From Brachionus manjavacas (lineage: Eukaryota; Rotifera; Eurotatoria; Ploima; Brachionidae): 64,000 nt of DNA. Of the stretch, positions 20,791-49,149 are shown piece by piece. A program made the position numbers and the translations under genes. The stretch is from the NCBI GenBank assembly GCA_019054805.1, contig JAHQIY010000013.1, forward strand, positions 1,674,001 to 1,738,000, read 5' to 3'. The notes beneath the pieces are model-generated. The model saw only the letters and a list, made by a program, of their open reading frames with translations. It was not told the DNA's origin and did not search any database. Position 1 is the first letter of the stretch. Each line of letters opens with the position of its first letter.

Positions 20791-20940
20791 ATATTTTGAA
20801 AATTGCTGCGCACTGTAATGGTATTTTCAAAACAGTTCAAAAAGAAGATAGCCAGGAGTCGAATTCGGGTGACAAAAACTTACATGAAACCTACTTACAA
20901 ATTAATAAAGCGTTTTACCAGACAGGATCCACTTAAAAAT

Positions 20941-21834: not shown

Positions 21835-21919
21835 CTGATTTAAGGGTGACTCTATTGACACATAGTGTTGCAATAAATTATTTTATTGACGCACTTTGTT
21901 ACAATTAATTATTTTATTG

Positions 21920-22647: not shown

Positions 22648-22791
22648 TTTTATTGACACACTTTGTTACAATAAATTATTTTATTGACACATGAGTGTTT
22701 AAAAATAAACAAAACAAAGTATTTTATTCAAAGAAAATCGCATAAAAAAAATTTAAGTCCGGAAGCAACATAAAAAGCAATAACATAAAAT

Positions 22792-24766: not shown

Positions 24767-24956
24767 TGTTAAATTATGAATTATTTTTATTTTTTTTCAA
24801 AAATTTAAGATTTTTTAAGTTAAACATTTCAAAAATAAGCATGGTTTTTTTGACGGATATACATAGTGTGTCAATAAAATAATTTATTGCAACAAAGTGT
24901 GTCATTAAAATAATTTATTGCAACACTATGTGTCAATAGACACTTCGCTGATTTAA

Positions 24957-25304
24957 TACAAAAAAAAGATTTGATATTGTGATTATTTATTTATCAATCT
25001 AAATTTAATTTAAAATAATTAAAAATTAAAAAAAAAAACAAAAAATTAAAGATTTAACAAAAACAATTAATAAAAAAATCAAAAAAATCATCTGTTTTGA
25101 TAACCACTCGTGTTGAAAGACAAATTGTTTGCTTGCGTCTATTGCATCATATCATTTTTTCGTATGTTGATTTGAAAAAAACCTAGGACAGACACCAACC
25201 GAGTTAACTTCGAGCACAAGACTTCCTCCTATCAACTCTTTAGTAAGTAATTTCTAAATAGACCGAGTTATTGTGAAACAAGCGGTAAATGACTGATTTT
25301 TGTT
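24957..25304. other. AT-rich spacer, no gene seen
   Basis: Unique-looking AT-rich sequence between the MULE target-site duplication and the satellite. No open frame or repeat module is recognised. Confidence 0.5.
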
Positions 25305-28300: not shown

Positions 28301-30690
28301 TGGAAAACCAATTTCACTTCTCTCATACAAGTTACGAAATTGTTCTCCCATTTCCTAATCAAAAGCCTGATTTTTGTTTTCTTTTAGTTACTTAATTAAG
28401 CTCAAGACTGATATCAGGCTTTTGAATTAGATATGGAAAACCAATATCACTTCTCTTATACAAGTTATTAAATTGTTTTTACCATCTCTTATTAGAAAGC
28501 CTGATTTTTTGTGCTTTTAGGTACTTGAATGAACTTTAGATAAAAATCAGGCTTTTGAAACAAATATGGAAAACCAATTTCACTTCTCTCATAAAAGTTA
28601 CGAAATTGTTCTCCCATTTCCTAATCAAAAGCCTGATTTTTGTTTCCTTTTAGTTACTTAATTAAGCTCAAGACTGAAATCAGGCTTTTGAAACAAATAT
28701 GGAAAACCAATTTCACTTCTATCATACAAGTTATGAAATTGTTTTTCCAAATCTTACTCAAAGGCCTGATTTTAATTTTAAGTTTTTATGCTAAAAATTT
28801 GCCCAAAACTGAAATCAGGCTTTTGAATTAGATATGGAAAACCAATTTCACTTCTCTCATACAAGTTATGAAATTGTTTTTCGAAATCTTACTCAAAGGC
28901 CTGATTTTAATTTTGGGTTTTTATGCTAAAATTTGCCCAAAACTGAAATCTGGCTTTTGAATAAAAAATGGTAAACCAATTTCAATTCTCTCATAGAAGT
29001 TATGAAATTGTTTTTACCATGTCTTATTCAAAAGCCTGATTTTTTTGTGCTTTTAGGTACTTGAATGAATTAAGATAAAAATCAGGCTTTTGAAACAAAT
29101 ATGCAAAATCAATTTCACTTCTCTCATACAAGTTACGAGATTGTTCTCCCATTTCCTAATCAAAAGCCTGATTTTTGTTTTCTTTTAGTTACTTTATTAA
29201 GCTCAAGACTGAAATCAGGCTTTTGAATTAGATATGGAAAACCAATTTCACTTCTCTCATACAAGTTATAAAATTGTTTTTACCATGTCTTATTCAAAAG
29301 CCTGATTTTTTTGTGCTTTTAGGTACTTGAATGAACTTTAGATAAAAATCAGGCTTTTGAAACAAATATGGAAAACCAATTTCACTTCTCTCATAAAAGT
29401 TACGAAATTGTTCTCCCATTTCCTAATCAAAAGCCTGATTTTTGTTTCCTTTTAGTTACTTAATTAAGCTCAAGACTGAAATCAGGCTTTTGAAACAAAT
29501 ATGGAAAACCAATTTCACTTCTCTCATACAAGTTATGAAATTGTTTTTCCAAATCTTACTCAAAGGCCTGATTTTAATTTTAAGTTTTTATGCTAAAATT
29601 TGCCCAAAACTGAAATCAGGCTTTTGAATTAGATATGGAAAACCAATTTCACTTCTCTCATACAAGTTATGAAATTGTTTTTCGAAATCTTACTCAAAGG
29701 CCTGATTTTAATTTTGGGTTTTTATGCTAAAATTTGCCCAAAACTGAAATCTGGCTTTTGAATAAAAAATGGTAAACCAATTTCAATTCTCTCATACAAG
29801 TTATGAAATTGTTTTTACCATGTCTTATTCAAAAGCCTGATTTTTTTGTGCTTTTAGGTACTTGAATGAACTTTAGATAAAAATCAGGCTTTTGAAACTA
29901 ATATGGAAAACCAATTTCACTTCTCTCAAATAAGTTATGAAATTGTTTTTCCAAATCTTACTCAAAGGCCTGATTTTTGTTTCCTTTTAGTTACTTAATT
30001 AAGCTCAAGACTGAAATCAGGCTTTTGAATTAGATATGGAAAACCAATTTCACTTCTCTCATACAAGTTATGAAATTGTTTTTCCAAATCTTACTCAAAG
30101 GCCTGATTTTAATTTTGGGTTTTTATGCTAAAATTTGCCCAAAACTGAAGTCAGGCTTTTGAATTAAATGTGGAAAACGAATTTCACTTCTCTCATACAA
30201 GTTATAAAATTGTTTTTACCATGTCTTATTCAAAAGCCTGATTTTTTTGTGCTTTTAGGTACTTGAATTAACTTTAGATAAAAATCAGGCTTTTGAAACA
30301 AATATGGATAACCAATTTCACTTCTCTCATACAAGTTATGAAATTGTTCTCCCATTTCCTAATCAAAAGCCTGATTTTTGTTTCCTTTTAGTTACTTAAT
30401 TAAGCTCAAGACTGAAATCAGGCTTTTGAATTAGAAATGGAAAACCAATTTCACTTTTCTCATTAAAGGTATGAAATTGTTTTTCCAAATCATACAAGTT
30501 ATGAAATTGTTTTTACCATGTTTTATTGAAAAGCCTGTTTTTTTTGTGCTTTTAGGTACTTGAATGAACTTTAGATAAAAATCAGGCTTTTGAATAAAGT
30601 ATTGAAAACCAATTTCACCTCTCTCATACAAGTTAAGAAATTGTTCTCCCATTTCCTAATCAAAAGCCTGATTTTTTTTTTGGTTTTTTT
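25305..30690. repeat. Complex satellite of inverted-repeat cassettes
   Basis: About 5.4 kb of tandem cassettes, roughly 135-140 bp each (about 38-40 units estimated from spacing). Each cassette opens with AATCAGGCTTTTGA and closes with the exact inverse TCAAAAGCCTGATT, around a body containing CCAATTTCACTTCTCTCAT. Linkers between cassettes are of three kinds: S1 (TTTCCTTTTAGTTACTTAAT), S2 (GTGCTTTTAGGTACTTGAAT) and S3 (TTATGCTAAAATTTGCCC). They follow the order S1, often S3, then S2, and each linker goes with its own body variant. Larger periods are visible, for example 26001-26669 repeated at once by 26670 onwards (669 bp), and about 802 bp between 28640 and 29442. Short frames here (25359-25601, 28640-28831, 29442-29627, 30431-30652) are satellite translations. 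Confidence 0.92.
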
Positions 30691-31484
30691 ATTTAAATTT
30701 GCGCGAGACTGATATTGAAACAAATCTTATTCAGTTGCTTTTGAAAATTGAAATAATTAAAAACAAATATTAATTGTTTTACCTTAATTTTCTTCTCGTA
30801 TATCGTCCCACTGTTGAATATTAACAATTAAACTGCTCATTAACAAATGCTGATTACTCTCTAAATCTAAAACCTGGCTTCAGAGCAACAACTCGAAGAA
30901 TTCTATGACCAATTTGTTTAGTTGTGAATTTTTACACAAAAAAACCAATACAAAATTTTAATAGTTAACAAAAATATGGATTTCGGACTACAAATTTTTC
31001 TTTAAGTTTAAAACGTGAAAAAAACAATCTTGTATTTCGTTCAAAACTAAATAATTAATTTTTAAAACTTAATTACTGAAACTAAATAATTTACTTTATT
31101 CTCAATCAAATAAGTATATCATTATGATGAAATCAGACAGCTCCATTAGTCTTCTATATTTTTTATTATTATGTTATTATTATTAATTAAAAATTGCATT
31201 TTTTTTAAATGAAAATATTTTAACCTTTAATCTAACTCAAGTATTCAAAGCAAGCCAGTCTTTTGGATTTAAAATTTAGGATGGGATTCTATCAAAAACA
31301 TTAAGAAAATAATACAAAAAAATTTTCTGATTAATTATACTAGCAATAAAAAATTTCGGAAAAATTTTTTTTTAATTATCCTGACTTAACAAAGCCAAAG
31401 CTAATCTAAAAATAAATTCTGCTCAAAAAATTTTAAAATAAACCCGTGTTAGTTTATAAATAAACCTGTTACTTGATATTACTA
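30691..31484. other. AT-rich region where the rest of the SET domain is expected
   Basis: I see no exon that would complete the SETD1 SET domain (it would begin near PNCYA and end with a cysteine-rich post-SET motif). The sequence is AT-rich with no repeat module. A short minus-strand frame near 30780-30840 reads IQQWDDIREEN, without recognisable homology. Confidence 0.5.
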
Positions 31485-32745
31485 CTAAAATAAAGAGTAA
31501 AAAAAATGTCTACTTACATCACAGGAATGATTGATAAACCGAGACAAATTGCCGCATTTAGTGACGTCAACAATTGTGGTTTGATCAATGCGAAACATGC
31601 AGCTACTGCCAATACCCTGGTCGTTATAGCACTTTTCCCTATGATCGGCGACCGATTGCCGTATGGTCTCGCCCACATACTCGATGACAAACTCCTCGGG
31701 CGCAATTGTCTCCAAGGCGAACAATCCCCAGTCGTGGATGTCCGACTTGCAGAATTTCAGCGACTTTTTCCTCAGTTTCAGCTGGCTATACTTGAAAAAG
31801 TCGTGTACTTCATTGCAGGCCATTAGTTTGCGTTGGAGAGAGCGGGCCTCGCGGGCCGACGACATAGACGACACCTCCTGGCTCAAAGCATCAATGTTAG
31901 ACCCGCTGGACGAGTTGTGCGCCATGCGACGACGAGCCCACGTTCATCTGTAGCGACAAGCTCAAATAGCTCTGCTTGAATTGCTCCCTGAACTTTATTT
32001 TTTCGTGGCGAGTCAAATTTCTATAGGGCCGGACGAGCGCACTCGACCAGCGCGTCGTCCCGGTACGCGTAGGCCCGCTCGGTGCACTTGAGCCTTCTGA
32101 CAATGTCGCAAAACTCGCCGTCAACAGCTTTATCTGTCGAGTTCTCCTGGTCGATCATTTGGTCATACACGCGCTTCAAGTACAGCAAGTCCTCGGCGTC
32201 CAGGCCCAGCGTCAAGAAGCTCCTCATTATTTGGTCACCGCGGGCCCGTGTGCGCCTCGCGAACTCTCGGCCACTTTTTCGGGCGCCGCGGCCAACTTCT
32301 TTTTCTCCGGCTTGACCGGCGGTGGCAGTAAATTGCCCAGCTCACGCGACAAGCTCTTTGGCTTCTCTTCTTTTAGCCAAGGCATGTTCGTCGTGTAAAA
32401 GTGCTCTTCCCATATTTGCATCTGCATCTTGGCATCCACTATGCGAACTCCCTGAGTCTCGTCTTTCTGTTTCATCAGCAAATAGTGCTGTTTTTTGAGA
32501 TTGTCTTGTCTCTCCAGCAAAGTGGTTATCAGCAATGGAGAGGACTTTTTTGTCACTGGCTCACAGCCGCTCTTTTCTGCATCGACTTTTTTTTTGGACT
32601 TTTTGGTGCGCTTTTTCACCATCTTTGCATCGTCATCTTCCCAATTTATAAATTTGACCCTAAATGTGATGTCCAAAAAGCAAACCTTGGTAAAAAGTTG
32701 GGAGCAAGTTTTTTCATGAAACTATGGAGCGTAACCTGAAACATT
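31485..32745 (-). pseudogene. SETD1: SETD1 C-terminal part: N-SET and first half of SET
   Basis: GC-rich minus-strand sequence. The frame entering at 32740 after a TAG acceptor reads FLDITFRVKFINWEDDD, then a Lys-rich stretch. The N-SET region follows: SFLTLGLDAEDLLYLKRVYD, matching SETD1 GLDSEDxxYLRxTYE. Then come TGTTRWSSALVRPYRNLT and the SET domain start [65 protein letters not shown]. It stops at 31518 at a good donor (GTAAGT). The second half of SET, with the rest of the SAM and catalytic pocket and post-SET, is not found. At least three frame changes occur (near 32227, 32050-32110 and 31920); the first is cured by one extra A in an AAA run. SETD1 is the catalytic subunit of COMPASS (H3K4 methylation). 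This is either a pseudogene or an error-ridden consensus of a real gene. Confidence 0.85.
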
Positions 32746-33549
32746 TGAATTTGCGGCGATTCGGTCTTGAGCAAAAACTGTAGAAAAGTATATTTGGTTA
32801 TATTAAATCCCAGTTTTATTTAAATTATTGATAATTATCTAAAAAATATACTTAAACATTTTTTAAAAAATTTTGCTAAACTTAAACAAAACAAAAGCTA
32901 AAGAAAAAATAATTTTTATATTCAGAAGTGTAGTTTTAATATTGACAAAAACAGTACTAAATGTTTTTTTGATTTTAAGGCTAAAACTTTTTTAAATTTT
33001 AAATTTTATAAAAATTTATTGAATATTTTGCTTTGCTTTAATTTTTTGCTCCAACCTTCACCGCCGCTCCAAAAAACCCTTATTAAATTATTATATTTTT
33101 ATGTAAATTCAATGCATTATAAATTAATAGATAATTTTTACACTTTTTTTGGCCCTTTTTATATTTACTGAAATTTACTTTTTTACTTTAGCAATTTTAA
33201 TTAACGTAAATTTACGTAAAATCACGAAAATTTCGAAAAAGTACGTAAAATTTTATAAAAACAGTTTATAATAGCAGTACAGTAATTTCTTATAAGATAA
33301 AAACAGGAATGTTAATAATATATTTTTTTTCTAAAAAAAATTTTGATTGAAAGCCGGACAATTAATATTAGATTCTTATTTTTCTTTTTGAATGAATAGA
33401 AAAAAAAAATTAGTAGACTTTTGAAATATCAAGTTTATAATTTATGTATTTATTATTAATTTCTTTAAATTGACTGTGTTAAATTTAAATTTTTTAAATA
33501 TTTTGACACTTCTAGTAACTAGACATAAGAAAATATTAAAAAAAAAATT
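32746..33549. other. AT-rich sequence, putative SETD1 intron
   Basis: No gene or repeat module is seen. It lies between the two minus-strand SETD1 parts, just outside the palindrome, and would be intronic if they belong to one gene. It contains several TTACGTAAA-like words near 33205-33250. Confidence 0.4.
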
Positions 33550-34269
33550 CTAAGCTAATCATCTATTAAATATTTAATTAATAAGGGTATTTTAGGCTGT
33601 TTGTAATATGATAATTCTAAGCGAGTTTAATACAAAGTGATTGAACTACTATTCGAGTTAAATACTATAATTTTTTGTTAATATTTTATTTAAATTAAAA
33701 AAGTTGTTAAAATAAACAAAAAATAAAAAAGTAGAAAAATTGATCAATAGATCAAACATCAAAATTGTGACTTAAGTAACGTTAAAATAAATCTAATATA
33801 CATGTCAATGTTTTTTTCGATTCGAATTCGATATTTGACAACTTTTCAAAAAGACAATTAATTATTTAAAATAGCTTTTACACTGCCGGAAACTAATTTG
33901 TGACATCATATCATATGATATCATTCAATTTCTTCTAAACTCTGAAAATTTAAAAGATGCATATTTAATTTGCATATTTGATTTGGAAATAAACATTTAG
34001 TATTAGTTTTTACATAAAAATTTAGGACTAAATTCAAAGTATTAAATTGGTTTAGTACTAAATTACTTAGTATCGGATTTTAAACAATGTTAATTTAATT
34101 TTTTAATAAAAAAATTGTTATTATTGATTAATATCATTGATCAAAAAATTGCAAAATTGAGTTTAACTAAAACTTTAAAAATTATTAAATTGTAAAATTA
34201 TATAAAAGTTAAAATTAAAGAATTGTCACCTTATAAAATTGAATGAGGAAAAATGTTAAACTATAATTT

Positions 34270-34475
34270 TTAAATTACGGAATTTTTAAATTTTGGATTA
34301 GTAAAATTTTAAAAGGGAATTCAATAAGAGATTTAATAATTTAATAAGAAATTCAAACAAAATTTTTAATTACGGAATTTTTAAATTTTGGATTTGTAAA
34401 ATTTTAAAAGGGAATTCAATAAGAGATTTAATAATTTAATAAGAAATTCAAACAAAATTTTAAAATTACGGAATT
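34270..34475 (+). repeat. 95 bp tandem duplication in AT-rich DNA
   Basis: Two adjacent direct copies (the word AATTTTTAAATTTTGGATT at 34281 and 34376, period 95). A third weaker unit follows. The same pair is mirrored in the right arm at about 45600-45810, so the duplication predates the palindrome. Confidence 0.7.
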
Positions 34476-34747
34476 GTTTAATTACAAAATTAAACGAGAA
34501 GAAAAATAAAAGTAAAATAGTTTAATTTTGGAATTGTAAAATTTAATAAAAGAATTTAATAAGAAATTAAACAAAATTAAAATTACAGAATTATAACCTT
34601 ATAAAATTGAAATTGAGGAAGAATGTAAACCAATATAGTTTATTTTAGCTGTAAATTTTTATAAGGGGGGTATTAAATAAAATTTTTAAATCGTTAACTT
34701 TTAAAATTCGATAACAAAGAAAAACTAAAAAATATAATTGTCAATTA

Positions 34748-35167
34748 TATGAAAGATAGAGGCTTGACTGATTTGAAGAGAGGACACAGAACGTCTAGTT
34801 CACATTTCGTAGAATTTTGTGAAAAATACTTCGAAAAATCAAAAGAATATTTAAAATTGGAAGCCCTTAATTATATGTAAAATGAAGACGAAACGATAAT
34901 GGGATTAAAAAATACATATTAGAAGAGCTACGTTGCAATGAAAAACTCTCAACTAATTCAGAAAAAAATCCTCAGCATCATGAATTTGTTTTTTCATATG
35001 ATGAATGGAAAAATTTAGAAGAAACAATTACATCAGCAAGAAGGAAAAAATTTTTATCAGCAGCAAATGCATTAATATCAAAGAAAATTCAATCTGATGG
35101 AATAAATTGCTTATTCAAGCACAAAAACAATAAATTTTGTTCTGTTAGATGTAAAAATTATTCATAA
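34748..35167 (+). pseudogene. Unrecognised coding remnant in the left palindrome arm
   Basis: Two consecutive open stretches have coding character. 34750-34878 starts MKDRGLTDLKRGHRTSS and runs through FVEFCEKYFEKSKEYLKL to a stop after LNYM. 34884-35167, in another frame, reads IKKYILEELRCNEKLST, then HHEFVFSYDEWKNLEE, then SARRKKFLSAANALISKKI and FKHKNNKFCSVRCKNYS before TAA. The amino-acid make-up is far from that of the surrounding low-complexity DNA. I do not recognise the family. It lies antisense to SETD1 in what would be its intron, and is repeated in reverse at 44912-45331. Confidence 0.45.
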
Positions 35168-36046
35168 AATGTTAAACTAAAATAGTTAAATTTTTGATAT
35201 GTAAATTTTTATAGGGGGTAAATTAAATAAAATTTTGAAATTACAAAATTGAATGAGGAAAATGTTTAACTAGAATTGTAAAATTTTGGAACTGGTAATT
35301 TAATGAGAAATTAAACAAAATTTTAAAATGCTTAATGGTTAAGTAACTTTGCTTAATCTTTGCTTTGCCAAAAAATATTTCTGCAAAAACTCTGCAATCT
35401 ATTTGCACTGTTGATTGGAATACCTTTTTAAAGCGTAGACTTATTTTACTGCACTAAGCAAATTTGCTTATAATTAAGCATTTTACAGAACTAAATTATC
35501 TCTTTTAGTTAAATTTCTATAATATTTATATTGTTTACAATTACAGAATTGTGCACTTTTAAAATGTAATAAGGGAAAGATTGAACAAATATTTTTATAT
35601 TAAAGCATGAAAAATTTCACTGATTAAATTCTTTAAATCGATAGCTAAAATTGAAAATTAAGGAAGCATTGGACACATATCAGAATCGAATTATATTATT
35701 TATTTTTATTATTATTAAAGCCCAATAGACAGAATTTTAAACTAAAAATATTCAAAATTAAAAAAAAGAAAAGAATAAAGTAAAAAATGAAGATGCACAA
35801 ATTAAGCCTAATTTTAATGTCAGAAAACCGTTTTATTTGATAAAAAAACGGAACAATTTTTCATCAAAAATAAATAAACAAATAAAAAAAAATACCTTGA
35901 TAATTGCGCTGAATTTAAACTAGGCACTCTTTTTTTCTCCCATCTCTTAAAACATTGTTATTCTCTTCCAAATTGGCTTCTTCTTGTTTGAAAGTCCAAC
36001 TATGCCCAATCGCTCACTCAACACTAGTGCGGCGCACACACTCGTT

Positions 36047-37159
36047 CTAAACAACAGCGGTGACAATTTTTTTGTCTGATTCGGCAAAAGCGTGCGAGGG
36101 CCTGTTGTGCGCTTGAGCATGAGCTGAACTGCACGGGGATTTGTCTGATTTGTGGTAGTAGTCGCGGTCGTCGTCTAGTTTGGCATTATTTACACCTTGT
36201 ACAAGAGAGTGAGTGGTAGTGTATTTGAATCGCTTGGTAGGAGCGGGCGGCGAGTCCCACGAGCTTGAGCGGGCCCGCGGCGACACTCTGTCGTGTCGTC
36301 TGTGCGGCGAACGGCGTCGCCGATGCCTGGGCCGGTAGTGTCGATCACGTGATCATCGACAGCGTGATCTGGACGAGCGAGAGTGCGAGCGTCGTCGGTG
36401 TCGCTCGTAGCGCTTGTGCATCTGGTTGTTGTTGCGGTCGCCGAGGCGCTGAGACGGCGGAGTGCTCGGCCGCAGGTTGGCTGGCAAGTACAGTCCCACG
36501 CTGCCGAACCACTCGTCGATCAACAGAAAAACGGTGTGCTCGAAGTACTTGCGGCACAGGTCCGTGCGTATAACTTGCTTTAGTTCGTGTACGATGCCGT
36601 CGACAGACTTTTGCTTGAACTCGGCCTTGTCGAGCGGCGGTGGCGGGGTAGAGGCGGCGGAAGGGTCGGGGGCGCTGGCGGTGGGGCCTGAGGAGGTGCG
36701 GGGGCCGCGGCCACGGCCTTAACACTCGGCGGCGCGCTCGGCTGCAGGCTGATGTTGAAGATGGGGGCGATGCGCGACTCGAGAGTGGTGGCCCGCGCCG
36801 GTGGGGACGGGGGAGCGCGCGGCACAGGCGCTGGCGGCGCCGGGATGCACAGCTGCTCGACAATTTTGGCGCGCTCGATGCTCCGACTTCTCGCTCGCGA
36901 ATATGCAGTTGGCCATGACGAGGTGCTTGCGGCTCTTCGGATGGTAGTAGATGCGGCATTCGGCTATGTCGCCGTATTTAGCGCATATTTCGTGCTGAAA
37001 TTTGTGGTCGATGTTGTCGTTTAGGTTGGCGAATGTGAGTTCTTTGTAGGGCACCGGGCCCACCCTGTACTGGTCGACTTTGAAGCTGGGCACGGCCAGG
37101 TCGAGCGGGTCGGTGCGGTAGTTGCGCTTTTTTTTTGCGGGTTGGAGCATTTGGAGCAT
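36047..37159 (-). pseudogene. SETD1: SETD1 N-terminal part (RRM, RS-rich), left arm copy
   Basis: The start ATG is at 37159. After PAKKKRNY the sequence VPSFKVDQYRVGPVPYKELT and FANLNDNIDHKF, then CAKYGDIAECRIYYHPKSRK, match the SETD1 RRM ([20 protein letters not shown] in the human protein). A Pro-rich linker, the conserved helix SVDGIVHELKQVIRTDLCRK, a WFGSVG segment and an Arg/Ser-rich region follow. The frame shifts after SEHRA (shared with the other arm), shifts again where this arm has four G against five in the other (near 36637), meets an in-frame TGA in the RS region (shared), and shifts at a run of seven T near 36067. A plausible donor (AAG/GTGTAA) is at 36196. The usual N-terminus before the RRM is missing. 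Confidence 0.82.
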
Positions 37160-37169
37160 TAATTTTCAA

Positions 37170-37615
37170 AATATTTGTTTTCAATTTTTTTTAAATAAAA
37201 AAAATATTTTCAAAACACATTTCAAACATAACAAAAGTTTAAAATTCTATACTTTAGGTTGCCTTTACAGTGGTTTAAATGCTTTGTAAGATTTTGAATT
37301 TTATATTAATTTTTTTACATTAAGTGGTGGTACAGAGGATGTAGCAGTTGCTACATTCTACAGAATATTTTTTTGCTTGTCCAAAATAAATCTATGGTTT
37401 ATTTTATATTTTGTTTCTGATTTTGTACTAAAATTCACAAAATTCTGAATTTTGCAGATGTATTGCAGAGTTTTGCAGAATCAGTATATTGGTGGTACAA
37501 AAAACGTTTCAGTTGCTACAATTTACAGAACATGTTTTGCTCCTTCAGAACCTGAGCTTTGACATTTTTTATATTTTGTATTTGTTTTTGTACCAATATT
37601 CACAATGCCGTTAAA
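37170..37615 (-). promoter_or_regulatory. Shared block directly upstream of SETD1, left
   Basis: Lies immediately 5' of the SETD1 ATG on the minus strand. It is the mirror of 42470-42917 and is also present at 20356-20790 without SETD1. It contains TGGTACAAAAAAC and the inverse GTTTTTTGTACCA. It could hold the promoter or first intron of SETD1, or be a repeat that SETD1 landed beside. No TATA or initiator can be singled out in such AT-rich DNA. Confidence 0.4.
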
Positions 37616-37619
37616 AGTG

Positions 37620-39886
37620 TTTAGTAAACAGGGAAAGAACTAGACGAGACATTGATTTGAATATATATTCATTAATTAGCAAAATCATCGAAATTAGAAA
37701 GAGAATGTGAAGGCTAAGTGGTAAAAAAATTCATGGCTTAAAATAAAATGATTTTGATAAGATCAAATGGTACGAATTTATTATGAGATTATTTACTTGT
37801 CTTACTGTAAATTAAGAAAAATTCAAGTTGAAACAACGATTCCAATTTAGAATAAGAAATCAAAAGTAAATTTTTGAAAATTTATTGATATCTTTACGTA
37901 ATGATCTTCCGAATTAATACATATGTATTTATAAATTTTAAAAGTAATTTTAATAAAATTAAGTTTATTTCCAATATTCGAAGAGTATTTTGGTAAATAA
38001 CTAGATAAAAACTTTTGTTTAGAGTTAGATAGAAAATATTTGATCGAATATTTTTTTTTACTTAACCAAAGATAATTTTATTAATACAAATATACTAATT
38101 TATAAATCAAAATCAATACTCATCATTTGATTTTATTTCTTAAACATTAATTATTTGTGTTCTTTTATCTTTTTACTGAATAAATCAAAATTCGTTTTTG
38201 ATTTTAAGTACATACATGAATATAAATTAAAAGTGATATTTTCACATGATTTTTTCCTATTTTACCGACACATTGCAACTATTTCGTTTGCATTCCCTTC
38301 ACTAAAATTTTTCTTCAAAACACATACTAGTAAGGAATTAATAACAAAATCGATTATTTTTCCTAAACTTGTTTAATAAGCACGAAATAAAATATTTACC
38401 TTGATTTTGACATTTGTTTAAGTTGTGAGTATATTGATTTATTTGTATTTAGAGATCTTTGATTCGGATTCATCCAATAAAGACTTACCTTTAAGAATAA
38501 TGCAATGTATTCACTGAAAAAATTAATAACATTCTCAAATAATTTCTAAAACTTCTAAAATTTTCTTCCCTCACTTTAGCCTTTATTACGTAGTTTTTTT
38601 AAAACAGACATTCATTTGAATATTAAAAACGCATTCTTTAAAAATTGTTCATAAAAAAATGTAAATTCTTTTAAATCATATTAAAAAATAAACAATTGAC
38701 TTTCCAGCTTAAAAGGCTTTCCGATTCTGAATTAAACAATTTATTCAATGTAAATATATTGCATGATAGTGTCATTTAAATTATGAAAGCTCATATAATT
38801 TTTCTTCCCTGACTAAAGCCGTTGTTCCATAATCTTTATTTCATTACAGACGTTAAATGAAATATTAATCAAGATCTCTGGATAAATTTTTCATAAATAA
38901 TAACTGATGATATTTTAAAGGGAATTAAATAAATTCTTTGAATATTGGATTATATTTGTTTCTATTGAAAGAGATTCATTTTAAAAACAGATATCAAAAG
39001 TAAATTTTTGAAAATTTATAGATATCTTTTCGTTATGATCTTCTGAATTGATACATATGTATTTGTAAATATTTAAAGTAATTTTAATAAAATTAAGTTT
39101 ATTTCCTATATTTGAAGAGTTTTTTGGTAAAAACTTTTGTTTAGAGTTAGTCTTTCTTTTTACTTCTATCTTTTTAATAAATAAATTAAAATTCGTCTTT
39201 GATTTTAAGAACATACATGAATATAAATTAATATTGTTATTTTCACATGATTTTTTCCTATTTCACCGACACATTGCAACTATTTCGTTTGCATTCCCTT
39301 CACTAAAATATTTTTTCAAAACACATACTAGTTAGTAACTAATGTCCAAATCGATTATGTTTACTAAACTTGTTTCATAAAGCATTGTGAAAAAGCAATA
39401 GTGAATAATTTAAGTTGGTTGTGATTACATGATTAAAAAATTTAATAGAGCTGATGAATGTTTGTCAAGTAAATAACTCGTCGAAAGATCTCCGTTTGTG
39501 TTAAATATTAGAAAAAAAGTAAGAAAAATGCATTTTTCATCCGAAAAATTTTTTTAATTTTTTATAATTAAGGACAATAACTGAAGACCTTTTTCATTTC
39601 ATTAATAGGGATTTGGTTAAATGAAAGATTTTTAATAGACTGATGTATTTACAAAAGTATGATGAAAGATTTTAGCTTCAGAAACGTTTGTCTGTCAAAA
39701 GGAAGCTAAAAAAGTGCATTTCCAACTAGAAAGTGTGCTTTTTATTGGTTTTTCTCAGTTTTTTTTTATTATTCGATAGAGAAGGCAAGTAAGATTTTAA
39801 AATCATTAGATTTGAATTTTTATTTAATATGCGCAGAAAATTAAATGATTCGATGATTCAAATCACTCAAAGAATGCATCATTAAT
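37620..39886 (-). repeat. Modules A, B, A, C in the left arm
   Basis: Non-coding repeat modules in reverse orientation: A at about 37880-38330, B at 38380-38880, A at 38985-39330 and C at 39600-39790. The 73- and 77-codon frames at 38155-38376 and 38981-39214 belong to these repeats. Confidence 0.7.
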
Positions 39887-40126
39887 CATTAATTTACATA
39901 GATGGTATTTATTTAATATTTTGAAAATTGCTTTATTTAAAGTCATTTTCTTCTCGGTTTTTTTCATTTCTTCATCTCACTATGGAAAAAAAAGATTAAC
40001 GATCAAAATTATTTTATTTTAAGCCATGAAATTTTTTTACCACTAAGTCTTCCCATTCTCATACTAATTTCGATGATGTTGCTCATTGATGAATATATAT
40101 TCAAATCATCGCCTCGTCTAGATTCG
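39887..40126. repeat. Spacer at the centre of the palindrome
   Basis: About 240 bp that does not pair with itself, between the two arms. It still resembles module H/C border sequence seen at about 14640-14720 and 50510-50720 (includes AAAGATTAACGATCAAAATT and CCACTAAGTCTTCCCA). The palindrome therefore closes through an asymmetric spacer, not a perfect hairpin tip. Confidence 0.75.
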
Positions 40127-40189
40127 ATTAATGATGCATTCTTTGAGTGATTTGAATCATCGAATCATTTAATTTTCTGCGTATATTAC

Positions 40190-42200
40190 ATAAAATTCAA
40201 ATCGGATGATTTTAAAATCTTACTTACCTTGTCTATCGAATAATAAAAAAAAACTAAGAAAAACCAATAAGAAGCACTTTTTCTAATTGGAATTGCACTA
40301 TTTTAGCTTCCTTTTGACAGACAAACCTCTCTGAAGCTAAAATCTTTCATCATACTTTTGTAAATACATCAGTCTATTAAAAAAACTTTCATTTAACCAA
40401 ATCCCTATTAATGAAATGAAAAAGATCTACAGTTATTTTCATTGATAAAAAAAAATTTTAAAAATTTTTCGGAGGATAAATGCATTTTTCTTACTATTTT
40501 TCTAATATTTTATAGATTTCACTTTAGGAAATAAATCAATTTTTTATTGCTAAACAGTTTATTTGTAATTAACACAAACGGATATCTTTCGACGAGTTAT
40601 TAACTTGACAAATATTAATCAGCTCTATTAAAGTTTTAATCATCTTATCACAACCAACTTAAATTATTCACTATTGCTTTTTCACAATGCTTTATGAAAC
40701 AAGTTTAGTAAACATAATCGATTTGGACATTAGTTACTAACTAGTATGTGTTTTGAAAAAATATTTTAGTGAAGGGAATGCAAACGAAATAGTTGCAATG
40801 TGTCGGTGAAATAGGAAAAAATCATGTGAAAATAACAATATTAATTTATATTCATGTATGTTCTTAAAATCAAAGACGAATTTTAATTTATTTATTAAAA
40901 AGATAGAAGTAAAAAGAAAGACTAACTCTAAACAAAAGTTTTTACCAAAAAACTCTTCAAATATAGGAAATAAACTTAATTTTATTAAAATTACTTTAAA
41001 TATTTACAAATACATATGTATCAATTCAGAAGATCATAACGAAAAGATATCTATAAATTTTCAAAAATTTACTTTTGATATCTGTTTTTAAAATGAATCT
41101 CTTTCAATAGAAACAAATATAATCCAATATTCAAAGAATTTATTTAATTCCCTTTAAAATATCATCAGTTATTATTTATGAAAAATTTATCCAGAGATCT
41201 TGATTAATATTTCATTTAACGTCTGTAATGAAATAAAGATTATGGAACAACGGCTTTAGTCAGGGAAGAAAAATTATATGAGCTTTCATAATTTAAATGA
41301 CACTATCATGCAATATATTTACATTGAATAAATTGTTTAATTCAGAATCGGAAAGCCTTTTAAGCTGGAAAGTCAATTGTTTATTTTTTAATATGATTTA
41401 AAAGAATTTACATTTTTTTATGAACAATTTTTAAAGAATGCGTTTTTAATATTCAAATGAATGTCTGTTTTAAAAAAACTACGTAATAAAGGCTAAAGTG
41501 AGGGAAGAAAATTTTAGAAGTTTTAGAAATTATTTGAGAATGTTATTAATTTTTTTTCAGTGAATACATTGCATTATTCTTAAAGGTAAGTCTTTATTGG
41601 ATGAATCCGAATCAAAGATCTCTAAATACAAATAAATCAATATACTCACAACTTAAACAAATGTCAAAATCAAGGTAAATATTTTATTTCGTGCTTATTA
41701 AACAAGTTTAGGAAAAATAATCGATTTTGTTATTAATTCCTTACTAGTATGTGTTTTGAAGAAAAATTTTAGTGAAGGGAATGCAAACGAAATAGTTGCA
41801 ATGTGTCGGTAAAATAGGAAAAAATCATGTGAAAATATCACTTTTAATTTATATTCATGTATGTACTTAAAATCAAAAACGAATTTTGATTTATTCAGTA
41901 AAAAGATAAAAGAACACAAATAATTAATGTTTAAGAAATAAAATCAAATGATGAGTATTGATTTTGATTTATAAATTAGTATATTTGTATTAATAAAATT
42001 ATCTTTGGTTAAGTAAAAAAAAATATTCGATCAAATATTTTCTATCTAACTCTAAACAAAAGTTTTTATCTAGTTATTTACCAAAATACTCTTCGAATAT
42101 TGGAAATAAACTTAATTTTATTAAAATTACTTTTAAAATTTATAAATACATATGTATTAATTCGGAAGATCATTACGTAAAGATATCAATAAATTTTCAA
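40190..42200 (+). repeat. Modules C, A, B, A in the right arm
   Basis: Mirror of 37880-39790: C at 40190-40430, A at 40765-41090, B at 41190-41690 and A at 41720-42200. Between them, 40440-40640 retains the roughly 60 bp that the left arm has lost. Confidence 0.7.
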
Positions 42201-42469
42201 AAATTTACTTTTGATTTCTTATTCTAAATTGGAATCGTTGTTTCAACTTGAATTTTTCTTAATTTACAGTAAGACAAGTAAATAATCTCATAATAAATTC
42301 GTACCATTTGATCTTATCAAAATCATTTTATTTTAAGCCATGAATTTTTTTTTACCACTTAGCCTTCACATTCTCTTTCTAATTTCGATGATTTTGCTAA
42401 TTAATGAATATATATTCAAATCAATGTCTCGTCTAGTTCTTTCCCTGTTTACTAAACACTTTTAACGGC

Positions 42470-42917
42470 ATTGTGAATTTTGGTACAAAAAACAAATACA
42501 AAATATAAAAAATGTCAAAGCTCAGGTTCTGAAGGAGCAAAACATGTTCTGTAAATTGTAGCAACTGAAACGTTTTTTGTACCACCAATATACTGATTCT
42601 GCAAAACTCTGCAATACATCTGCAAAATTCAGAATTTTGTGAATTTTAGTACAAAATCAGAAACAAAATATAAAATAAACCATAGATTTATTTTGGACAA
42701 GCAAAAAAATATTCTGTAGAATGTAGCAACTGCTACATCCTCTGTACCACCACTTAATGTAAAAAAATTAATATAAAATTCAAAATCTTACAAAGCATTT
42801 AAACCACTGTAAAGGCAACCTAAAGTATAGAATTTTAAACTTTTGTTATGTTTGAAATGTGTTTTGAAAATATTTTTTTTATTTAAAAAAAATTGAAAAC
42901 AAATATTTTGAAAATTA
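42470..42917 (+). promoter_or_regulatory. Shared block directly upstream of SETD1, right
   Basis: Mirror of 37170-37615, ending at the SETD1 ATG (42918). The two copies face outwards from the palindrome centre, so if this is a promoter, both SETD1 copies would be transcribed divergently. Direct repeats of AGCAACTG and GTACCACCA occur inside. Confidence 0.4.
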
Positions 42918-44128
42918 ATGCTCCAAATGCTCCAACCCGCAAAAAAAGCGCAACTACCGCACCGACCCGCTCGACCTGGCCGTGCCCAGCTTCAAAGTCG
43001 ACCAGTACAGGGTGGGCCCGGTGCCCTACAAAGAACTCACATTCGCCAACCTAAACGACAACATCGACCACAAATTTCAGCACGAAATATGCGCTAAATA
43101 CGGCGACATAGCCGAATGCCGCATCTACTACCATCCGAAGAGCCGCAAGCACCTCGTCATGGCCAACTGCATATTCGCGAGCGAGAAGTCGGAGCATCGA
43201 GCGCGCCAAAATTGTCGAGCAGCTGTGCATCCCGGCGCCGCCAGCGCCTGTGCCGCGCGCTCCCCCGTCCCCACCGGCGCGGGCCACCACTCTCGAGTCG
43301 CGCATCGCCCCCATCTTCAACATCAGCCTGCAGCCGAGCGCGCCGCCGAGTGTTAAGGCCGTGGCCGCGGCCCCCGCACCTCCTCAGGCCCCACCGCCAG
43401 CGCCCCCGACCCTTCCGCCGCCTCTACCCCCGCCACCGCCGCTCGACAAGGCCGAGTTCAAGCAAAAGTCTGTCGACGGCATCGTACACGAACTAAAGCA
43501 AGTTATACGCACGGACCTGTGCCGCAAGTACTTCGAGCACAACGTTTTTCTGTTGATCGACGAGTGGTTCGGCAGCGTGGGACTGTACTTGCCAGCCAAC
43601 CTGCGGCCGAGCACTCCGCCGTCTCAGCGCCTCGGCGACCGCAACAACAACCAGATGCACAAGCGCTACGAGCGACACCGACGACGCTCGCACTCTCGCT
43701 CGTCCAGATCACGCTGTCGATGATCACGTGATCGACACTACCGGCCCAGGCATCGGCGACGCCGTTCGCCGCACAGACGACACGACAGAGTGTCGCCGCG
43801 GGCCCGCTCAAGCTCGTGGGACTCGCCGCCCGCTCCTACCAAGCGATTCAAATACACTACCACTCACTCTCTTGTACAAGGTGTAAATAATGCCAAACTA
43901 GACGACGACCGCGACTACTACCACAAATCAGACAAATCCCCGTGCAGTTCAGCTCATGCTCAAGCGCACAACAGGCCCTCGCACGCTTTTGCCGAATCAG
44001 ACAAAAAATTGTCACCGCTGTTGTTTAGAACGAGTGTGTGCGCCGCACTAGTGTTGAGTGTGCAATTGGGCATAGTTGGACTGTCAAACAAGAAGAAGCC
44101 AATTTGGAAGAGAATAACAATGTTTTAA
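42918..44128 (+). pseudogene. SETD1: SETD1 N-terminal part (RRM, RS-rich), right arm copy
   Basis: Same domain order as the left copy. Here the run of A after CCCGC has seven bases, not nine, so the ATG at 42918 is out of frame with the RRM; the RRM frame is open from about 42982. After the shared shift behind SEHRA, the frame 43250-43723 is longer than on the left because the G-run is intact: Pro-rich linker, FKQKSVDGIVHELKQVIRTD, LIDEWFGSVG, then Arg/Ser-rich. It meets TGA at 43721-43723 and continues in the same frame as RDRHYRPRHRRRRSPHRRHD, to a stop at 44126-44128. One residue differs visibly between the arms (EHNVF here, EHTVF on the left). A donor like that of the left copy is at 43880. 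No SET domain follows on this side. Confidence 0.82.
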
Positions 44129-44911
44129 GAGATGGGAGAAAAAAAGAGTGCCTAGTTTAAATTCAGCGCAATTATCAAGGTATTTTTTTTTATTTGTTTA
44201 TTTATTTTTGATGAAAAATTGTTCCGTTTTTTTATCAAATAAAACGGTTTTCTGACATTAAAATTAGGCTTAATTTGTGCATCTTCATTTTTTACTTTAT
44301 TCTTTTCTTTTTTTTAATTTTGAATATTTTTAGTTTAAAATTCTGTCTATTGGGCTTTAATAATAATAAAAATAAATAATATAATTCGATTCTGATATGT
44401 GTCCAATGCTTCCTTAATTTTCAATTTTAGCTATCGATTTAAAGAATTTAATCAGTGAAATTTTTCATGCTTTAATATAAAAATATTTGTTCAATCTTTC
44501 CCTTATTACATTTTAAAAGTGCACAATTCTGTAATTGTAAACAATATAAATATTATAGAAATTTAACTAAAAGAGATAATTTAGTTCTGTAAAATGCTTA
44601 ATTATAAGCAAATTTGCTTAGTGCAGTAAAATAAGTCTACGCTTTAAAAAGGTATTCCAATCAACAGTGCAAATAGATTGCAGAGTTTTTGCAGAAATAT
44701 TTTTTTGGCAAAGCAAAGATTAAGCAAAGTTACTTAACCATTAAGCATTTTAAAATTTTGTTTAATTTCTCATTAAATTACCAGTTCCAAAATTTTACAA
44801 TTCTAGTTAAACATTTTCCTCATTCAATTTTGTAATTTCAAAATTTTATTTAATTTACCCCTATAAAAATTTACATATCAAAAATTTAACTATTTTAGTT
44901 TAACATTTTAT

Positions 44912-45331
44912 GAATAATTTTTACATCTAACAGAACAAAATTTATTGTTTTTGTGCTTGAATAAGCAATTTATTCCATCAGATTGAATTTTCTTTGATAT
45001 TAATGCATTTGCTGCTGATAAAAATTTTTTCCTTCTTGCTGATGTAATTGTTTCTTCTAAATTTTTCCATTCATCATATGAAAAAACAAATTCATGATGC
45101 TGAGGATTTTTTTCTGAATTAGTTGAGAGTTTTTCATTGCAACGTAGCTCTTCTAATATGTATTTTTTAATCCCATTATCGTTTCGTCTTCATTTTACAT
45201 ATAATTAAGGGCTTCCAATTTTAAATATTCTTTTGATTTTTCGAAGTATTTTTCACAAAATTCTACGAAATGTGAACTAGACGTTCTGTGTCCTCTCTTC
45301 AAATCAGTCAAGCCTCTATCTTTCATATAAT
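44912..45331 (-). pseudogene. Unrecognised coding remnant in the right palindrome arm
   Basis: Mirror of 34748-35167, with the same two frames (MKDRGLTDLKRGHRTSS and FSYDEWKNLEE). The two copies would give complementary RNA if transcription crossed the palindrome. No family recognised. Confidence 0.42.
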
Positions 45332-46529
45332 TGACAATTATATTTTTTTTAGTTTTTCTTTGTTATCGAATTTTAAAAGTTAACGATTTAAAAATTTTAT
45401 TTAATACCCCCCTTATAAAAATTTACAGCTAAAATAAACTATATTGGTTTACATTCTTCCTCAATTTCAATTTTATAAGGTTATAATTCTGTAATTTTAA
45501 TTTTGTTTAATTTCTTATTAAATTCTTTTATTAAATTTTACAATTCCAAAATTAAACTATTTTACTTTTATTTTTCTTCTCGTTTAATTTTGTAATTAAA
45601 CAATTCCGTAATTTTAAAATTTTGTTTGAATTTCTTATTAAATTATTAAATCTCTTATTGAATTCCCTTTTAAAATTTTACAAATCCAAAATTTAAAAAT
45701 TCCGTAATTAAAAATTTTGTTTGAATTTCTTATTAAATTATTAAATCTCTTATTGAATTCCCTTTTAAAATTTTACTAATCCAAAATTTAAAAATTCCGT
45801 AATTTAAAAATTATAGTTTAACATTTTTCCTCATTCAATTTTATAAGGTGACAATTCTTTAATTTTAACTTTTATATAATTTTACAATTTAATAATTTTT
45901 AAAGTTTTAGTTAAACTCAATTTTGCAATTTTTTGATCAATGATATTAATCAATAATAACAATTTTTTTATTAAAAAATTAAATTAACATTGTTTAAAAT
46001 CCGATACTAAGTAATTTAGTACTAAACCAATTTAATACTTTGAATTTAGTCCTAAATTTTTATGTAAAAACTAATACTAAATGTTTATTTCCAAATCAAA
46101 TATGCAAATTAAATATGCATCTTTTAAATTTTCAGAGTTTAGAAGAAATTGAATGATATCATATGATATGATGTCACAAATTAGTTTCCGGCAGTGTAAA
46201 AGCTATTTTAAATAATTAATTGTCTTTTTGAAAAGTTGTCAAATATCGAATTCGAATCGAAAAAAACATTGACATGTATATTAGATTTATTTTAACGTTA
46301 CTTAAGTCACAATTTTGATGTTTGATCTATTGATCAATTTTTTCTACTTTTTTATTTTTTGTTTATTTTAACAACTTTTTTAATTTAAATAAAATATTAA
46401 CAAAAAATTATAGTATTTAACTCGAATAGTAGTTCAATCACTTTGTATTAAACTCGCTTAGAATTATCATATTACAAACAGCCTAAAATACCCTTATTAA
46501 TTAAATATTTAATAGATGATTAGCTTAGC

Positions 46530-46777
46530 ATATCGAGTTTTTCAGTGACAGTTTTGAAAACTGAATTTATGTTAATTTGGTTTCAAGAAAAATGTCAACA
46601 TTCTTCTGATTGGATGTTTAGTTTTTTATGTGATTATTATTTGAACTTTTGTTGATTTATTCTTTTAATTTTTACTTCTCCTTCAACAAGGTTAATTTTA
46701 ATAAATAAACTAATAAAATTATAATTTTAAACATTTTATTTTAAAAAAATAAAAAACCAAAAAAACTAGTTAAAAAA
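46530..46777. other. AT-rich sequence outside the palindrome, no gene seen
   Basis: Short AT-rich spacer between the palindrome edge and the next ORF. No repeat module recognised. Confidence 0.5.
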
Positions 46778-47293
46778 TTAAATCACTAATTCTTCTCTTT
46801 TAAACTTAATTACAATACAATAAGAACCATCTATTTTATGCTCTTTCTGAAAAAAATCTTTATAAAAAACGTCTCTTTTTTTAGCTATCTTAACTTGAAT
46901 TGAATCGTCAATTATCTTTATTATATTATCATTTGTCAAAAAATTTGATAAAGGTAAACAAAGGCTTGAAATGAAATTTTTATTTTTTCCAAACTTTGAA
47001 TTTATTTTGTATAGACGAACCAGATGTTTTGATAAGTTTATTGATATCTTTGCGCTTATTGTAGTAAATGAGAATTCATTCTTTTTCGGCTTTAAGCTTT
47101 TAACCCACTGAAAAATCAATTCATTATTCATTAATATAACTTCATTGATTCTCTGTTTCGCTGCTCTACTCCTGCTTCTGGAATTAAACTTTTTGGCAAT
47201 TAACATAGTTTTCTGCCTATTTAATCGCTCTGAATACATTCCAACTTGATATTTCCCTTGATTTCTCGTTTTTGTCATTTCACAATGAGTCAA
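46778..47293 (-). CDS. Hypothetical basic protein, 171 codons
   Basis: An intact frame with good coding character: NQGKYQVGMYSERLNRQK near the start, a basic stretch KKFNSRSRSRAAKQRINEV, FQWVKSLKPKKNEFSF in the middle, and a C-terminus rich in Lys and Ile (IKFKREELVI). The internal ATG at 47278 (MTKTRNQGK) is a better start, because the first one lies inside the divergent plus-strand ORF. No transmembrane or catalytic motif seen, family not recognised. It may be one exon of a longer minus-strand gene or part of an unknown transposon; the location between a palindrome and a satellite would fit either. Confidence 0.5.
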   Translation of the reverse strand: MTHCEMTKTRNQGKYQVGMYSERLNRQKTMLIAKKFNSRSRSRAAKQRINEVILMNNELIFQWVKSLKPKKNEFSFTTISAKISINLSKHLVRLYKINSKFGKNKNFISSLCLPLSNFLTNDNIIKIIDDSIQVKIAKKRDVFYKDFFQKEHKIDGSYCIVIKFKREELVI

Positions 47294-48990: not shown

Positions 48991-49149
48991 ATTGATTTTC
49001 AATCGGGGTTTTAAAAATTAAATCTAAAAAAGAAAAACGATATTTAAATTAAAAAATAAAATGTAAAAAACCGCAAAATAGACTTTAAAAATCTTTTTTG
49101 AAATCTAATAAAGAAATTCTAAGAAAAATATTTGAAGTAAAAACGTCAT

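What the first reader, a model, noticed from the sequence alone, without database searches (positions are those of the whole stretch)
33550..46529. Near-perfect 12.9 kb palindrome with two head-to-head copies of the SETD1 5' half
The two 6.3-6.4 kb arms mirror each other apart from a 240 bp spacer, small indels, one indel of about 60 bp and some substitutions (for example EHNVF/EHTVF in the SETD1 reading). The substitutions argue against a simple fold-back read artefact and for a real inverted duplication that is diverging or being homogenised. Only the 5' half of SETD1 was duplicated. Transcription across the centre would give a long hairpin RNA from a chromatin-regulator gene, a possible source of small RNAs.
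Basis: partly seen in the sequence, partly recalled or inferred. Interest (0 to 1): 0.75.

Follow-up and report, generated by a model that had tools for sequence, protein, structure and literature searches.

The report
Palindrome across a gene-stealing transposon's edge
The mirror-image DNA is in the assembly, but what it mirrors is not a working gene: it is a broken piece of a histone-modifying gene (SETD1) carried by an unusually large DNA transposon that landed in a repeat-filled block next to satellite arrays, where DNA appears to have folded back and copied itself more than once.

Summary
Confirmed: window 33549-46528 is a ~12.98-kb palindrome (arms 6.34 and 6.40 kb, spacer 238 bp). The outer 5.9 kb of the arms differ by 5 substitutions and 10 short homopolymer length changes; the inner ~0.5 kb differs by about 8% plus a 60-bp indel.

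Reinterpreted: the SETD1 sequence is cargo of a transposon at 20360-37609 (17.25 kb, ~450-bp terminal inverted repeats, 8-bp target-site duplication GTTAAAAG). Ten loci, this one included, hold the SETD1 fragment; an eleventh (C12) looks like the native gene. The fragment begins in mid-coding sequence beside the TIR. Five of 7 tested copies have perfect 8-9-bp target-site duplications. The element resembles a very large Pack-MULE/Foldback element, but no transposase of its own was found.

The palindrome formed after insertion: both arms copy the same transposon/chromosome junction. Its centre is an older, diverged head-to-head repeat pair, as expected of fold-back or template-switch repair. 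The right arm ends within a base of a dispersed repeat's terminus. The AT-rich, centromere-like block between satellite arrays holds a second palindrome (98.65%, 6.4-kb arms) inside a direct-inverted-direct triplication.

No reads were available, so misassembly is not excluded. The small-RNA idea is untested.

The parts
20352..20359 (.). Left copy of the 8-bp target-site duplication GTTAAAAG
20360..20804 (+). Left terminal inverted repeat of the SETD1-carrying transposon (begins GGCATTGTGAA)
   Evidence: TIR alignment 452 columns, 92.9%; same start in other copies
21844..24947 (-). Nested autonomous-looking MULE inserted in the element (69-bp TIRs 21851-21919/24872-24940; 447-aa open frame 23453-24796 with MULE and ZSWIM RNaseH-like domains); other copies have the site empty, with a 9-bp overlap of the two flanks
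25293..30487 (.). 133-bp satellite array inside the transposon, also present in other copies of the element
31235..37152 (-). Captured SETD1 fragment (starts in mid-coding sequence, ends shortly after the SET exon); SET exon within 31485-31943
   Evidence: homology to C12 locus L033; Pfam SET
37161..37609 (-). Right terminal inverted repeat; last base of the 17,250-bp transposon is 37609
37610..37617 (.). Right copy of the target-site duplication GTTAAAAG
33549..39425 (+). Left arm, near-identical part (5' part of the SETD1 fragment, right TIR, ~1.8 kb of local C13 repeats)
39426..39887 (+). Inner repeat A (left half of the older, diverged head-to-head pair)
39888..40125 (.). Spacer between the arms, not itself duplicated in the palindrome (the presumed fold-back loop)
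   Evidence: similar sequence follows A in other repeat copies
40126..40646 (-). Inner repeat A' (right half of the diverged pair, with the 60-bp insertion); nearest relative is a different repeat copy from that of A
40647..46528 (-). Right arm, near-identical mirror of 33549-39425
42459..42466 (.). Mirror of the target-site duplication/flank (CTTTTAAC), showing that the transposon-chromosome junction itself was duplicated
42467..42916 (+). Mirror copy of the right TIR
43112..43723 (+). 203-aa open frame in the right arm (mirror of the SETD1 exon; open here, broken in the left arm by one missing G at 36645)
46529..46946 (+). Dispersed repeat whose terminus lies within 1 base of the end of the right arm
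   Evidence: 10 other loci begin at window position 46529 or 46530; extent from two copies

Best explanation
A DNA transposon family (about 20 kb in several copies) with ~450-bp terminal inverted repeats captured a 5.9-kb internal fragment of the native SETD1 gene (native-like locus on contig C12) and spread it to about ten places. One copy inserted at window 20360-37609 (8-bp target-site duplication) into an AT-rich repeat block between satellite arrays. Later a break or stalled fork just beyond the transposon's right end was repaired by fold-back (or template switching): two older, ~92%-identical head-to-head repeat copies (A at 39426-39887 and A' at 40126-40646) annealed, leaving the 238-bp spacer as the loop, and synthesis copied ~5.9 kb of the left side (local repeats, right TIR, 5' part of the captured SETD1) in reverse, after which the new end was joined to the terminus of a dispersed repeat at 46529. 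Shown: transposon ends, target-site duplication, shared capture breakpoint, duplication of the same junction in both arms, separate nearest relatives of A and A', contrast between old centre and young arms. Inferred: the break, the fold-back step and the final end-joining. The palindrome most likely has no function; it is a repair scar in a block where such events recur.
For: Transposon: homology among the C33, C2, C30 (109 kb), C29 and C13 copies stops at the same point (37609-37614) with unrelated flanks; flanks of both ends at 7 loci give perfect 8-9-bp duplications at 5 (C13 8; C29, C30 109 kb, C35, C26 9), 8 bp with one odd base at C2, none at C6; the 25-base terminus at up to 3 mismatches occurs 578 times (305+273) against 0 for the reversed-pattern control. 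Capture: 7 of the 8 sequences compared with C12 (C13 left and right, C33, C2, C30 109 kb, C49, C29; C31 lacks that exon) begin at the same base in mid-coding sequence and have a length change at 783; 6 of these 7 cleanly lack 1037-1108, the seventh (C33) has scattered gaps there. Palindrome after insertion: the mirrored target-site flank and local repeats are in the right arm. Fold-back: A's nearest relative is C13:1688782 (95.4%), that of A' is C13:1654181 (96.3%), in separate parts of the tree, whereas the outer arms differ by 5 substitutions in ~5.88 kb. Recurrence: second palindrome C13:1601365-1607728/1608058-1614417, 98.65%, in a direct-inverted-direct triplication. Precedent: human inverted duplications with a single-copy spacer bordered by short inverted sequences (PMC3907307, abstract); yeast fold-back between divergent repeats, suppressed only beyond 25% heterology in long single-stranded DNA (PMC10164571, abstract).
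Against: No reads or coverage. Ten of the 15 outer-arm differences are homopolymer length changes, by majority of other copies 7 contractions in the left arm and 3 in the right, which could be consensus errors. The same pattern (identical outer, diverged inner arms) could arise from arm-to-arm gene conversion that stopped short of the centre; palindrome 2 has a mosaic of identical and 3-5%-diverged tracts and no diverged inner pair. The coincidence of the right arm's end with a repeat terminus is unexplained by fold-back alone. C49 has the SETD1 fragment with the same 5' edge but no TIR in the 658 bases beyond, C6 lacks a target-site duplication, and C33's left end was not found in the 120 bases read.
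Confidence: 0.66

Rival explanations
1. Assembly or library artefact: a fold-back chimera or mis-join created the right arm; the chromosome has only the left copy.
For: No reads available; 10 of 15 outer-arm differences are homopolymer length changes, typical of consensus error. Palindromes are a known class of library chimera (recalled).
Against: The inner right repeat A' is not a copy of the left A (about 8% different, own nearest relative); isolated substitutions are derived in both arms (36534 in the right, 37597 in the left); full-length matches to the centre and to the outer junction occur once each, within a 3.2-Mb contig; a second palindrome of similar size lies in the same block.
Confidence: 0.13
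2. Older palindrome kept near-identical by arm-to-arm gene conversion, as in ampliconic sex-chromosome palindromes; only the innermost 0.5 kb escaped.
For: Sharp step from ~0.1% to ~8% divergence at 39425/40647; palindrome 2 shows 400-bp bins with 0-1 substitutions beside bins with 12-19.
Against: A and A' are closest to different repeat copies, so their difference probably predates the pairing; conversion would have to cover the whole 5.9 kb up to the outer edge.
Confidence: 0.17
3. Transposon-made inverted duplication: aberrant (alternative-end) transposition of the element generated the mirrored copy.
For: A transposon end lies in each arm, and the right arm stops within a base of another repeat's terminus.
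Against: Neither the centre (2.4 kb outside the element) nor the left outer breakpoint (33549, inside the SETD1 fragment) is at an end of this element.
Confidence: 0.06
4. The palindrome is a selected small-RNA locus: its hairpin transcript silences SETD1 or the transposon (not exclusive of the origins above).
For: Both arms share 402 of 1817 21-mers with the first large exon of the C12 SETD1 gene; longest exact match to the left arm 76 nt.
Against: No transcript or small-RNA data; young, single locus; no test of selection on the hairpin.
Confidence: 0.04

Closest known systems
Pack-MULEs / animal Pack-TIRs (Tan et al. 2021, PMC8277862; abstract and passages seen)
   Same: TIR DNA transposon carrying a host gene fragment; parental copy not between TIRs; multicopy spread with distinct target-site duplications; 8-9-bp duplications and long TIRs as in MULEs and Foldback FB4
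   Different: Captured piece is ~5.9 kb with introns (median 224 bp in animal Pack-TIRs, 305 bp in Pack-MULEs per that paper); elements 7-28 kb; no transposase identified. That paper found no Pack-MULE in 100 animal reference genomes; the organism here is unnamed and not known to be an animal
Drosophila Foldback FB4 / Ssk-FB4 (PMC8277862, passage)
   Same: Long TIRs (~700 bp there, ~450 bp here), long target-site duplications (9-10 bp there, 8-9 here), transposase unknown, carries a host gene
   Different: No sequence comparison was made; cargo sizes not compared
Transposon-amplified histone H3 and DNA methyltransferase genes in fungi (Dhillon et al. 2019, PMC6710886, abstract)
   Same: A chromatin gene captured and amplified by a transposon while (for H3) the original is kept
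   Different: hAT element and RIP inactivation there; here a SETD1 fragment, 8-9-bp duplications, breakage by indels and stops
Fold-back inverted duplications with a single-copy spacer (Hermetz et al. 2014, PMC3907307; Ait Saada et al. 2023, PMC10164571; abstracts)
   Same: Spacer bordered by inverted repeats, then long near-identical arms
   Different: Interstitial, 6-kb arms, in a genome assembly; no terminal deletion or dicentric product seen
[quoted passage not shown]
   Same: Palindrome 2 has the direct-inverted-direct triplication that this model predicts
   Different: The window palindrome has two copies only

Membership tests
MULE / Pack-MULE | Long, typically 9-bp target-site duplication (defining value recalled) | tested here: met
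   5 of 7 loci with both ends read have perfect 8-9-bp duplications; C2 8 bp with one odd base; C6 none
MULE / Pack-MULE | Long terminal inverted repeats | tested here: met
   452 columns, 92.9%
MULE / Pack-MULE | MULE transposase in the element or in a family member with the same ends | tested here: inconclusive
   150 listed Pfam MULE hits (150 of 394 candidates scored): none inside the SETD1-element intervals except the nested MULE at window 23777-24052; most of the elements' interior was not read
Pack-MULE / Pack-TIR | Host gene fragment between TIRs, parental copy not between TIRs | tested here: met
   SETD1 fragment abuts the TIR (37152/37161); the C12 locus shows no TIR or satellite match in the 7 kb read
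Polinton/Maverick | 6-bp target-site duplication (recalled); polymerase and integrase genes | tested here: not met
   8-9-bp duplications; the genes were not searched for
Helitron | No TIR, no target-site duplication (recalled) | tested here: not met
   TIR and duplications present
Set1/SETD1 H3K4 methyltransferase (C12 locus) | RRM plus C-terminal SET domain closest to Set1 | tested here: inconclusive
   RRM E 6.6e-8; SET E 2.6e-13 but only profile positions 2-70 of 105; best solved relatives are named H3K4-specific methyltransferases (Set1, recalled), 122 bits, versus KMT2A 84; the last SET exon was not seen in the 7 kb read
Fold-back inverted duplication | Spacer with inverted repeats at its edges that predate the duplication | tested here: met
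   spacer 39888-40125 between A and A', which have different nearest relatives (one tree, support not examined)
Centromere | CENP-A/kinetochore occupancy | not testable with these tools
   only the sequence context is centromere-like

The most novel reading that the evidence does not exclude
An exceptionally large (~20-kb) MULE/Foldback-type transposon family amplifies a 5.9-kb SETD1 fragment, and copies that land in centromere-like blocks are turned into palindromes whose hairpin RNA feeds small RNAs matching the native SETD1: a transposon-borne brake on a chromatin activator.
Probability: 0.04. Interest if true: 0.9.

Novelty: new variant of a known kind. Interest (0 to 1): 0.5.

Why it matters
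Gene-fragment capture by long-TIR transposons is best known from small plant elements; a review passage states that none of the first-reported Pack-MULEs exceeded 7 kb and that DNA transposition drops above 6 kb of cargo (PMC6431247, passages). Elements of 10.7, 19.1 and 28.5 kb that carry a piece of SETD1 and have perfect 9-bp duplications (C35, C30, C29) would stretch that limit, if their nested insertions came before the move. The palindrome, with an old centre and young arms, and its neighbouring triplication give a natural record of fold-back or template-switch repair in a satellite-flanked, centromere-like block.

Tried and rejected
Two independent transposon insertions in opposite orientation: rejected, the right arm also carries the same flank and 1.8 kb of adjoining local repeats. 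Helitron capture (a Helitron-like ORF lies at 54363-54824): rejected for this element, which has TIRs and target-site duplications. Polinton: duplication length does not fit. Nested MULE as the element's own transposase: rejected, other copies have the site empty. Haplotig duplicates as the source of the SETD1 copies: unlikely, the flanks that were read differ. A protein-coding role for the window copy: unlikely (frameshifts and stops). dN/dS against C12 is 0.51-0.74 in the first exon (7 sequences) and 0.22-0.45 in the second (7 sequences), with 0-6 stops; the lower second-exon values mix constraint on the native gene with drift and do not by themselves exclude past constraint on the copies. 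A search of the genome for the SET family, to find the last exon of C12, did not complete. The organism was not identified.
Full report
OBSERVATION. The window is bases 1,674,001-1,738,000 of contig C13 (3.21 Mb) of an unnamed 114-Mb, 61-contig genome; the window is 27% G+C (base counts). The palindrome is there: 33549-39887 mirrors 40126-46528 around a 238-bp spacer. Between 33549 and 39425 the arms differ by 5 substitutions and 10 homopolymer length changes; inside 39426/40646 they differ by about 8% plus a 60-bp insertion. Compared with other copies of the same sequences, by majority 7 of the 10 length changes are contractions in the left arm and 3 in the right (at 34727 and 36067 the copies disagree); of the two isolated substitutions one is derived in the right arm (36534) and one in the left (37597), and the three clustered ones look mixed. 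Homopolymer contractions may be consensus error; the substitutions and the diverged centre are the better evidence for two real arms.

WHAT THE ARMS CONTAIN. The SETD1 stretch occurs elsewhere in the genome. A protein search with the SET exon found 11 loci at 85% identity or more (C13, C6, C29, C12, C35, C49, C31, two on C30, C33, C2), and weaker hits of 37-46% that are other SET genes. I read sequence at 8 of these 11 (the window, and C33, C2, C30 at 109 kb, C49, C12, C31 and C29); C6, C35 and C30 at 303 kb are known by match coordinates, C6 and C35 also by their end flanks. C12 differs from the rest: stop-to-stop open frames of 669 and 405 codons with an RRM and a SET domain, closest among solved structures to H3K4-specific Set1-type methyltransferases, and no TIR or satellite match in the 7 kb read. 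I take it as the native gene, with the reservation that the exon after NHSC was not in the stretch read. Of the 8 other sequences compared with it (C13 left and right arm counted apart), 7 have the first large exon (C31 lacks it); all 7 begin at the same base of C12, in mid-coding sequence, and have a length change at 783. Six of the 7 cleanly lack 1037-1108; C33 has scattered gaps there. In the 4 where the alignment reaches it (C33, C2, C30, C49), 2079-2272 is lost. One capture followed by spread explains this. The copies have 0-6 in-frame stops per exon against C12. The C13 copies are broken; the left arm also lacks one G at 36645 that the right arm keeps.

THE CARRIER. Just beyond the fragment's 5' edge (37152) lies a ~450-bp sequence (37161-37609) whose inverted copy (92.9%) is at 20360-20804. 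Homology between copies stops at 37609-37614 in the five copies compared there, with unrelated flanks. A query from the left end and the exact ends give element spans of 28.5 kb (C29), 28.6 kb (C6), 20.9 kb (C2), 19.1 kb (C30 at 109 kb), 10.7 kb (C35), 15.8 kb (C31), 20.4 kb (C17, which shares only a 380-bp piece with the left-flank query) and 7.4 kb (C26, with 5' SETD1 pieces and a second right-type end at 379303). Flanks of both ends were read at 7 loci: perfect duplications at C13 (8 bp), C29, C30, C35 and C26 (9 bp); C2 has 8 bp and one odd base; C6 has none; at C33 the left end was not in the 120 bases fetched. The terminus occurs 578 times at up to 3 mismatches, 0 for the control, so the SETD1 elements belong to a large family; among the listed places (the list is cut off) 6 pairs of facing ends lie 957-991 bp apart, about two TIRs. 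Long TIRs and 8-9-bp duplications point to the Mutator/Foldback type, but no transposase of its own was found: of the 150 listed MULE hits (150 of 394 candidates scored) none lies in these intervals, apart from a nested 3.1-kb MULE at 21844-24947 whose site is empty in other copies.

THE SITE. The part of the arms outside the transposon (37618-39425) and the centre are repeats whose listed hits all lie on C13 between 1.525 and 1.755 Mb (those searches score only the best candidates and one search's list was cut). Over the 264 kb read, C13:1,534,001-1,798,000, the first ~40 kb behaves as a tandem array at 32% G+C (periods 278 and 233; repeat finder run on 10 kb of it), the last ~32 kb as a 188-bp array at 37% (likewise), and between them 32 of 46 four-kb bins are at 25% G+C or less; the SETD1 element and palindrome are among the richer bins. 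A few of the local repeats also lie left of the first array (1.525-1.531 Mb), so the array is not a clean outer border. The contig's midpoint falls in this block. This resembles a centromere; it is an inference from sequence alone.

HOW THE PALINDROME AROSE. The mirrored transposon end at 42467 has the mirrored flank CTTTTAAC, so the duplication copied the already inserted element together with its chromosomal flank. The centre holds two versions of one local repeat: among 11 copies longer than 350 bp in the 264 kb (these two and 9 others), the left one is nearest to C13:1688782 (95.4%), the right one to C13:1654181 (96.3%) (single midpoint-rooted tree, support values not examined). The head-to-head pair is therefore probably older than the 99.9%-identical outer arms. 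Fold-back annealing of such a pair, or a template switch between them, followed by copying ~5.9 kb, gives this structure; inverted duplications with a single-copy spacer and inverted sequences at its edges are described in PMC3907307, fold-back between divergent repeats in PMC10164571 (abstracts), and PMC6103520 (abstract) links such repeats to break-induced replication. On the far side the arm ends at 46528 and a dispersed repeat starts at 46529/46530: 10 other loci begin at those two positions and 2 more within 4 bases before them. A break at that repeat's end, joined to the copied strand, would fit; this step is a guess. Gene conversion between arms is the main biological rival.

RECURRENCE. 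The same block has a second palindrome, C13:1601365-1607728 / 1608058-1614417 (98.65%, spacer 329 bp), and a direct copy of its left side at 1615696-1623620 (98.3%): a direct-inverted-direct triplication, the product that the ODIRA model predicts (PMC4689423, abstract). Its arms are a mosaic of 400-bp bins with 0-1, 3-5 and 12-19 substitutions (not counting the bins that reach into spacer or outer flank) and lack an old inner pair, so the two palindromes need not share every step.

COMPARISON AND NOVELTY. Pack-TIRs are known in animals (370 in 100 genomes; median captured size 224 bp; no Pack-MULE in those reference genomes, while the FB4 elements of flies were argued to be MULEs; PMC8277862, abstract and passages). 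A histone H3 gene amplified by a hAT element and a transposon-amplified DNA methyltransferase gene are known in fungi (PMC6710886, abstract). Two paper searches gave no report of SETD1 captured by a transposon: 4 of 4 matches listed; 8 of 72 listed, none of the 8 holding the word SETD1; listings only, in the open-access library held, so this is weak evidence of absence. I rate the carrier as a new variant of a known kind, for its size and for the length of the captured piece, and the palindrome as a new member of a known kind.

LIMITS.

Noticed in passing
C13:1600155-1623620 (loci L022-L020): Second palindrome (98.65%, 6.37-kb arms, 329-bp spacer) inside a direct-inverted-direct triplication, with mosaic arm identity.
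   Followed up: partly
C13:1534001-1574000 and 1766001-1798000: Satellite arrays (278/233-bp and 188-bp units) on either side of an AT-rich repeat block: a candidate centromere.
   Followed up: partly
window 9863-12613: 917-aa open frame with endonuclease and reverse transcriptase domains, a non-LTR-type retrotransposon; a 2.6-kb tandem duplication (5333-7954 / 7928-10550, 98.6%) overlaps its start.
   Followed up: no
window 17061-20359 and 53077-56363: 3.3-kb inverted pair (95%); the right copy has a Helitron helicase-like N-terminal domain at 54363-54824.
   Followed up: no
L052 (C29:549001-551500), 295-501 minus strand: 68-aa frame in the interior of the 28-kb SETD1 element with a weak match (E 0.00067, just under the cut-off) to the PBCV-specific basic adaptor domain.
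   Followed up: no
L032 (C49:100001-107500): SETD1 fragment with the same 5' edge as the transposon copies but no TIR in the 658 bases beyond it: a truncated copy or a separate structure.
   Followed up: no
window 47708-50130 and 57892-58127: 80-bp and 79-bp tandem repeats; 47708-50130 recurs 24.8 kb downstream at ~99%, and 47708-49100 also on C3 and C26 at 98%.
   Followed up: no
genome-wide: Six listed pairs of facing element termini lie 957-991 bp apart, suggesting short elements made almost wholly of the two TIRs.
   Followed up: no
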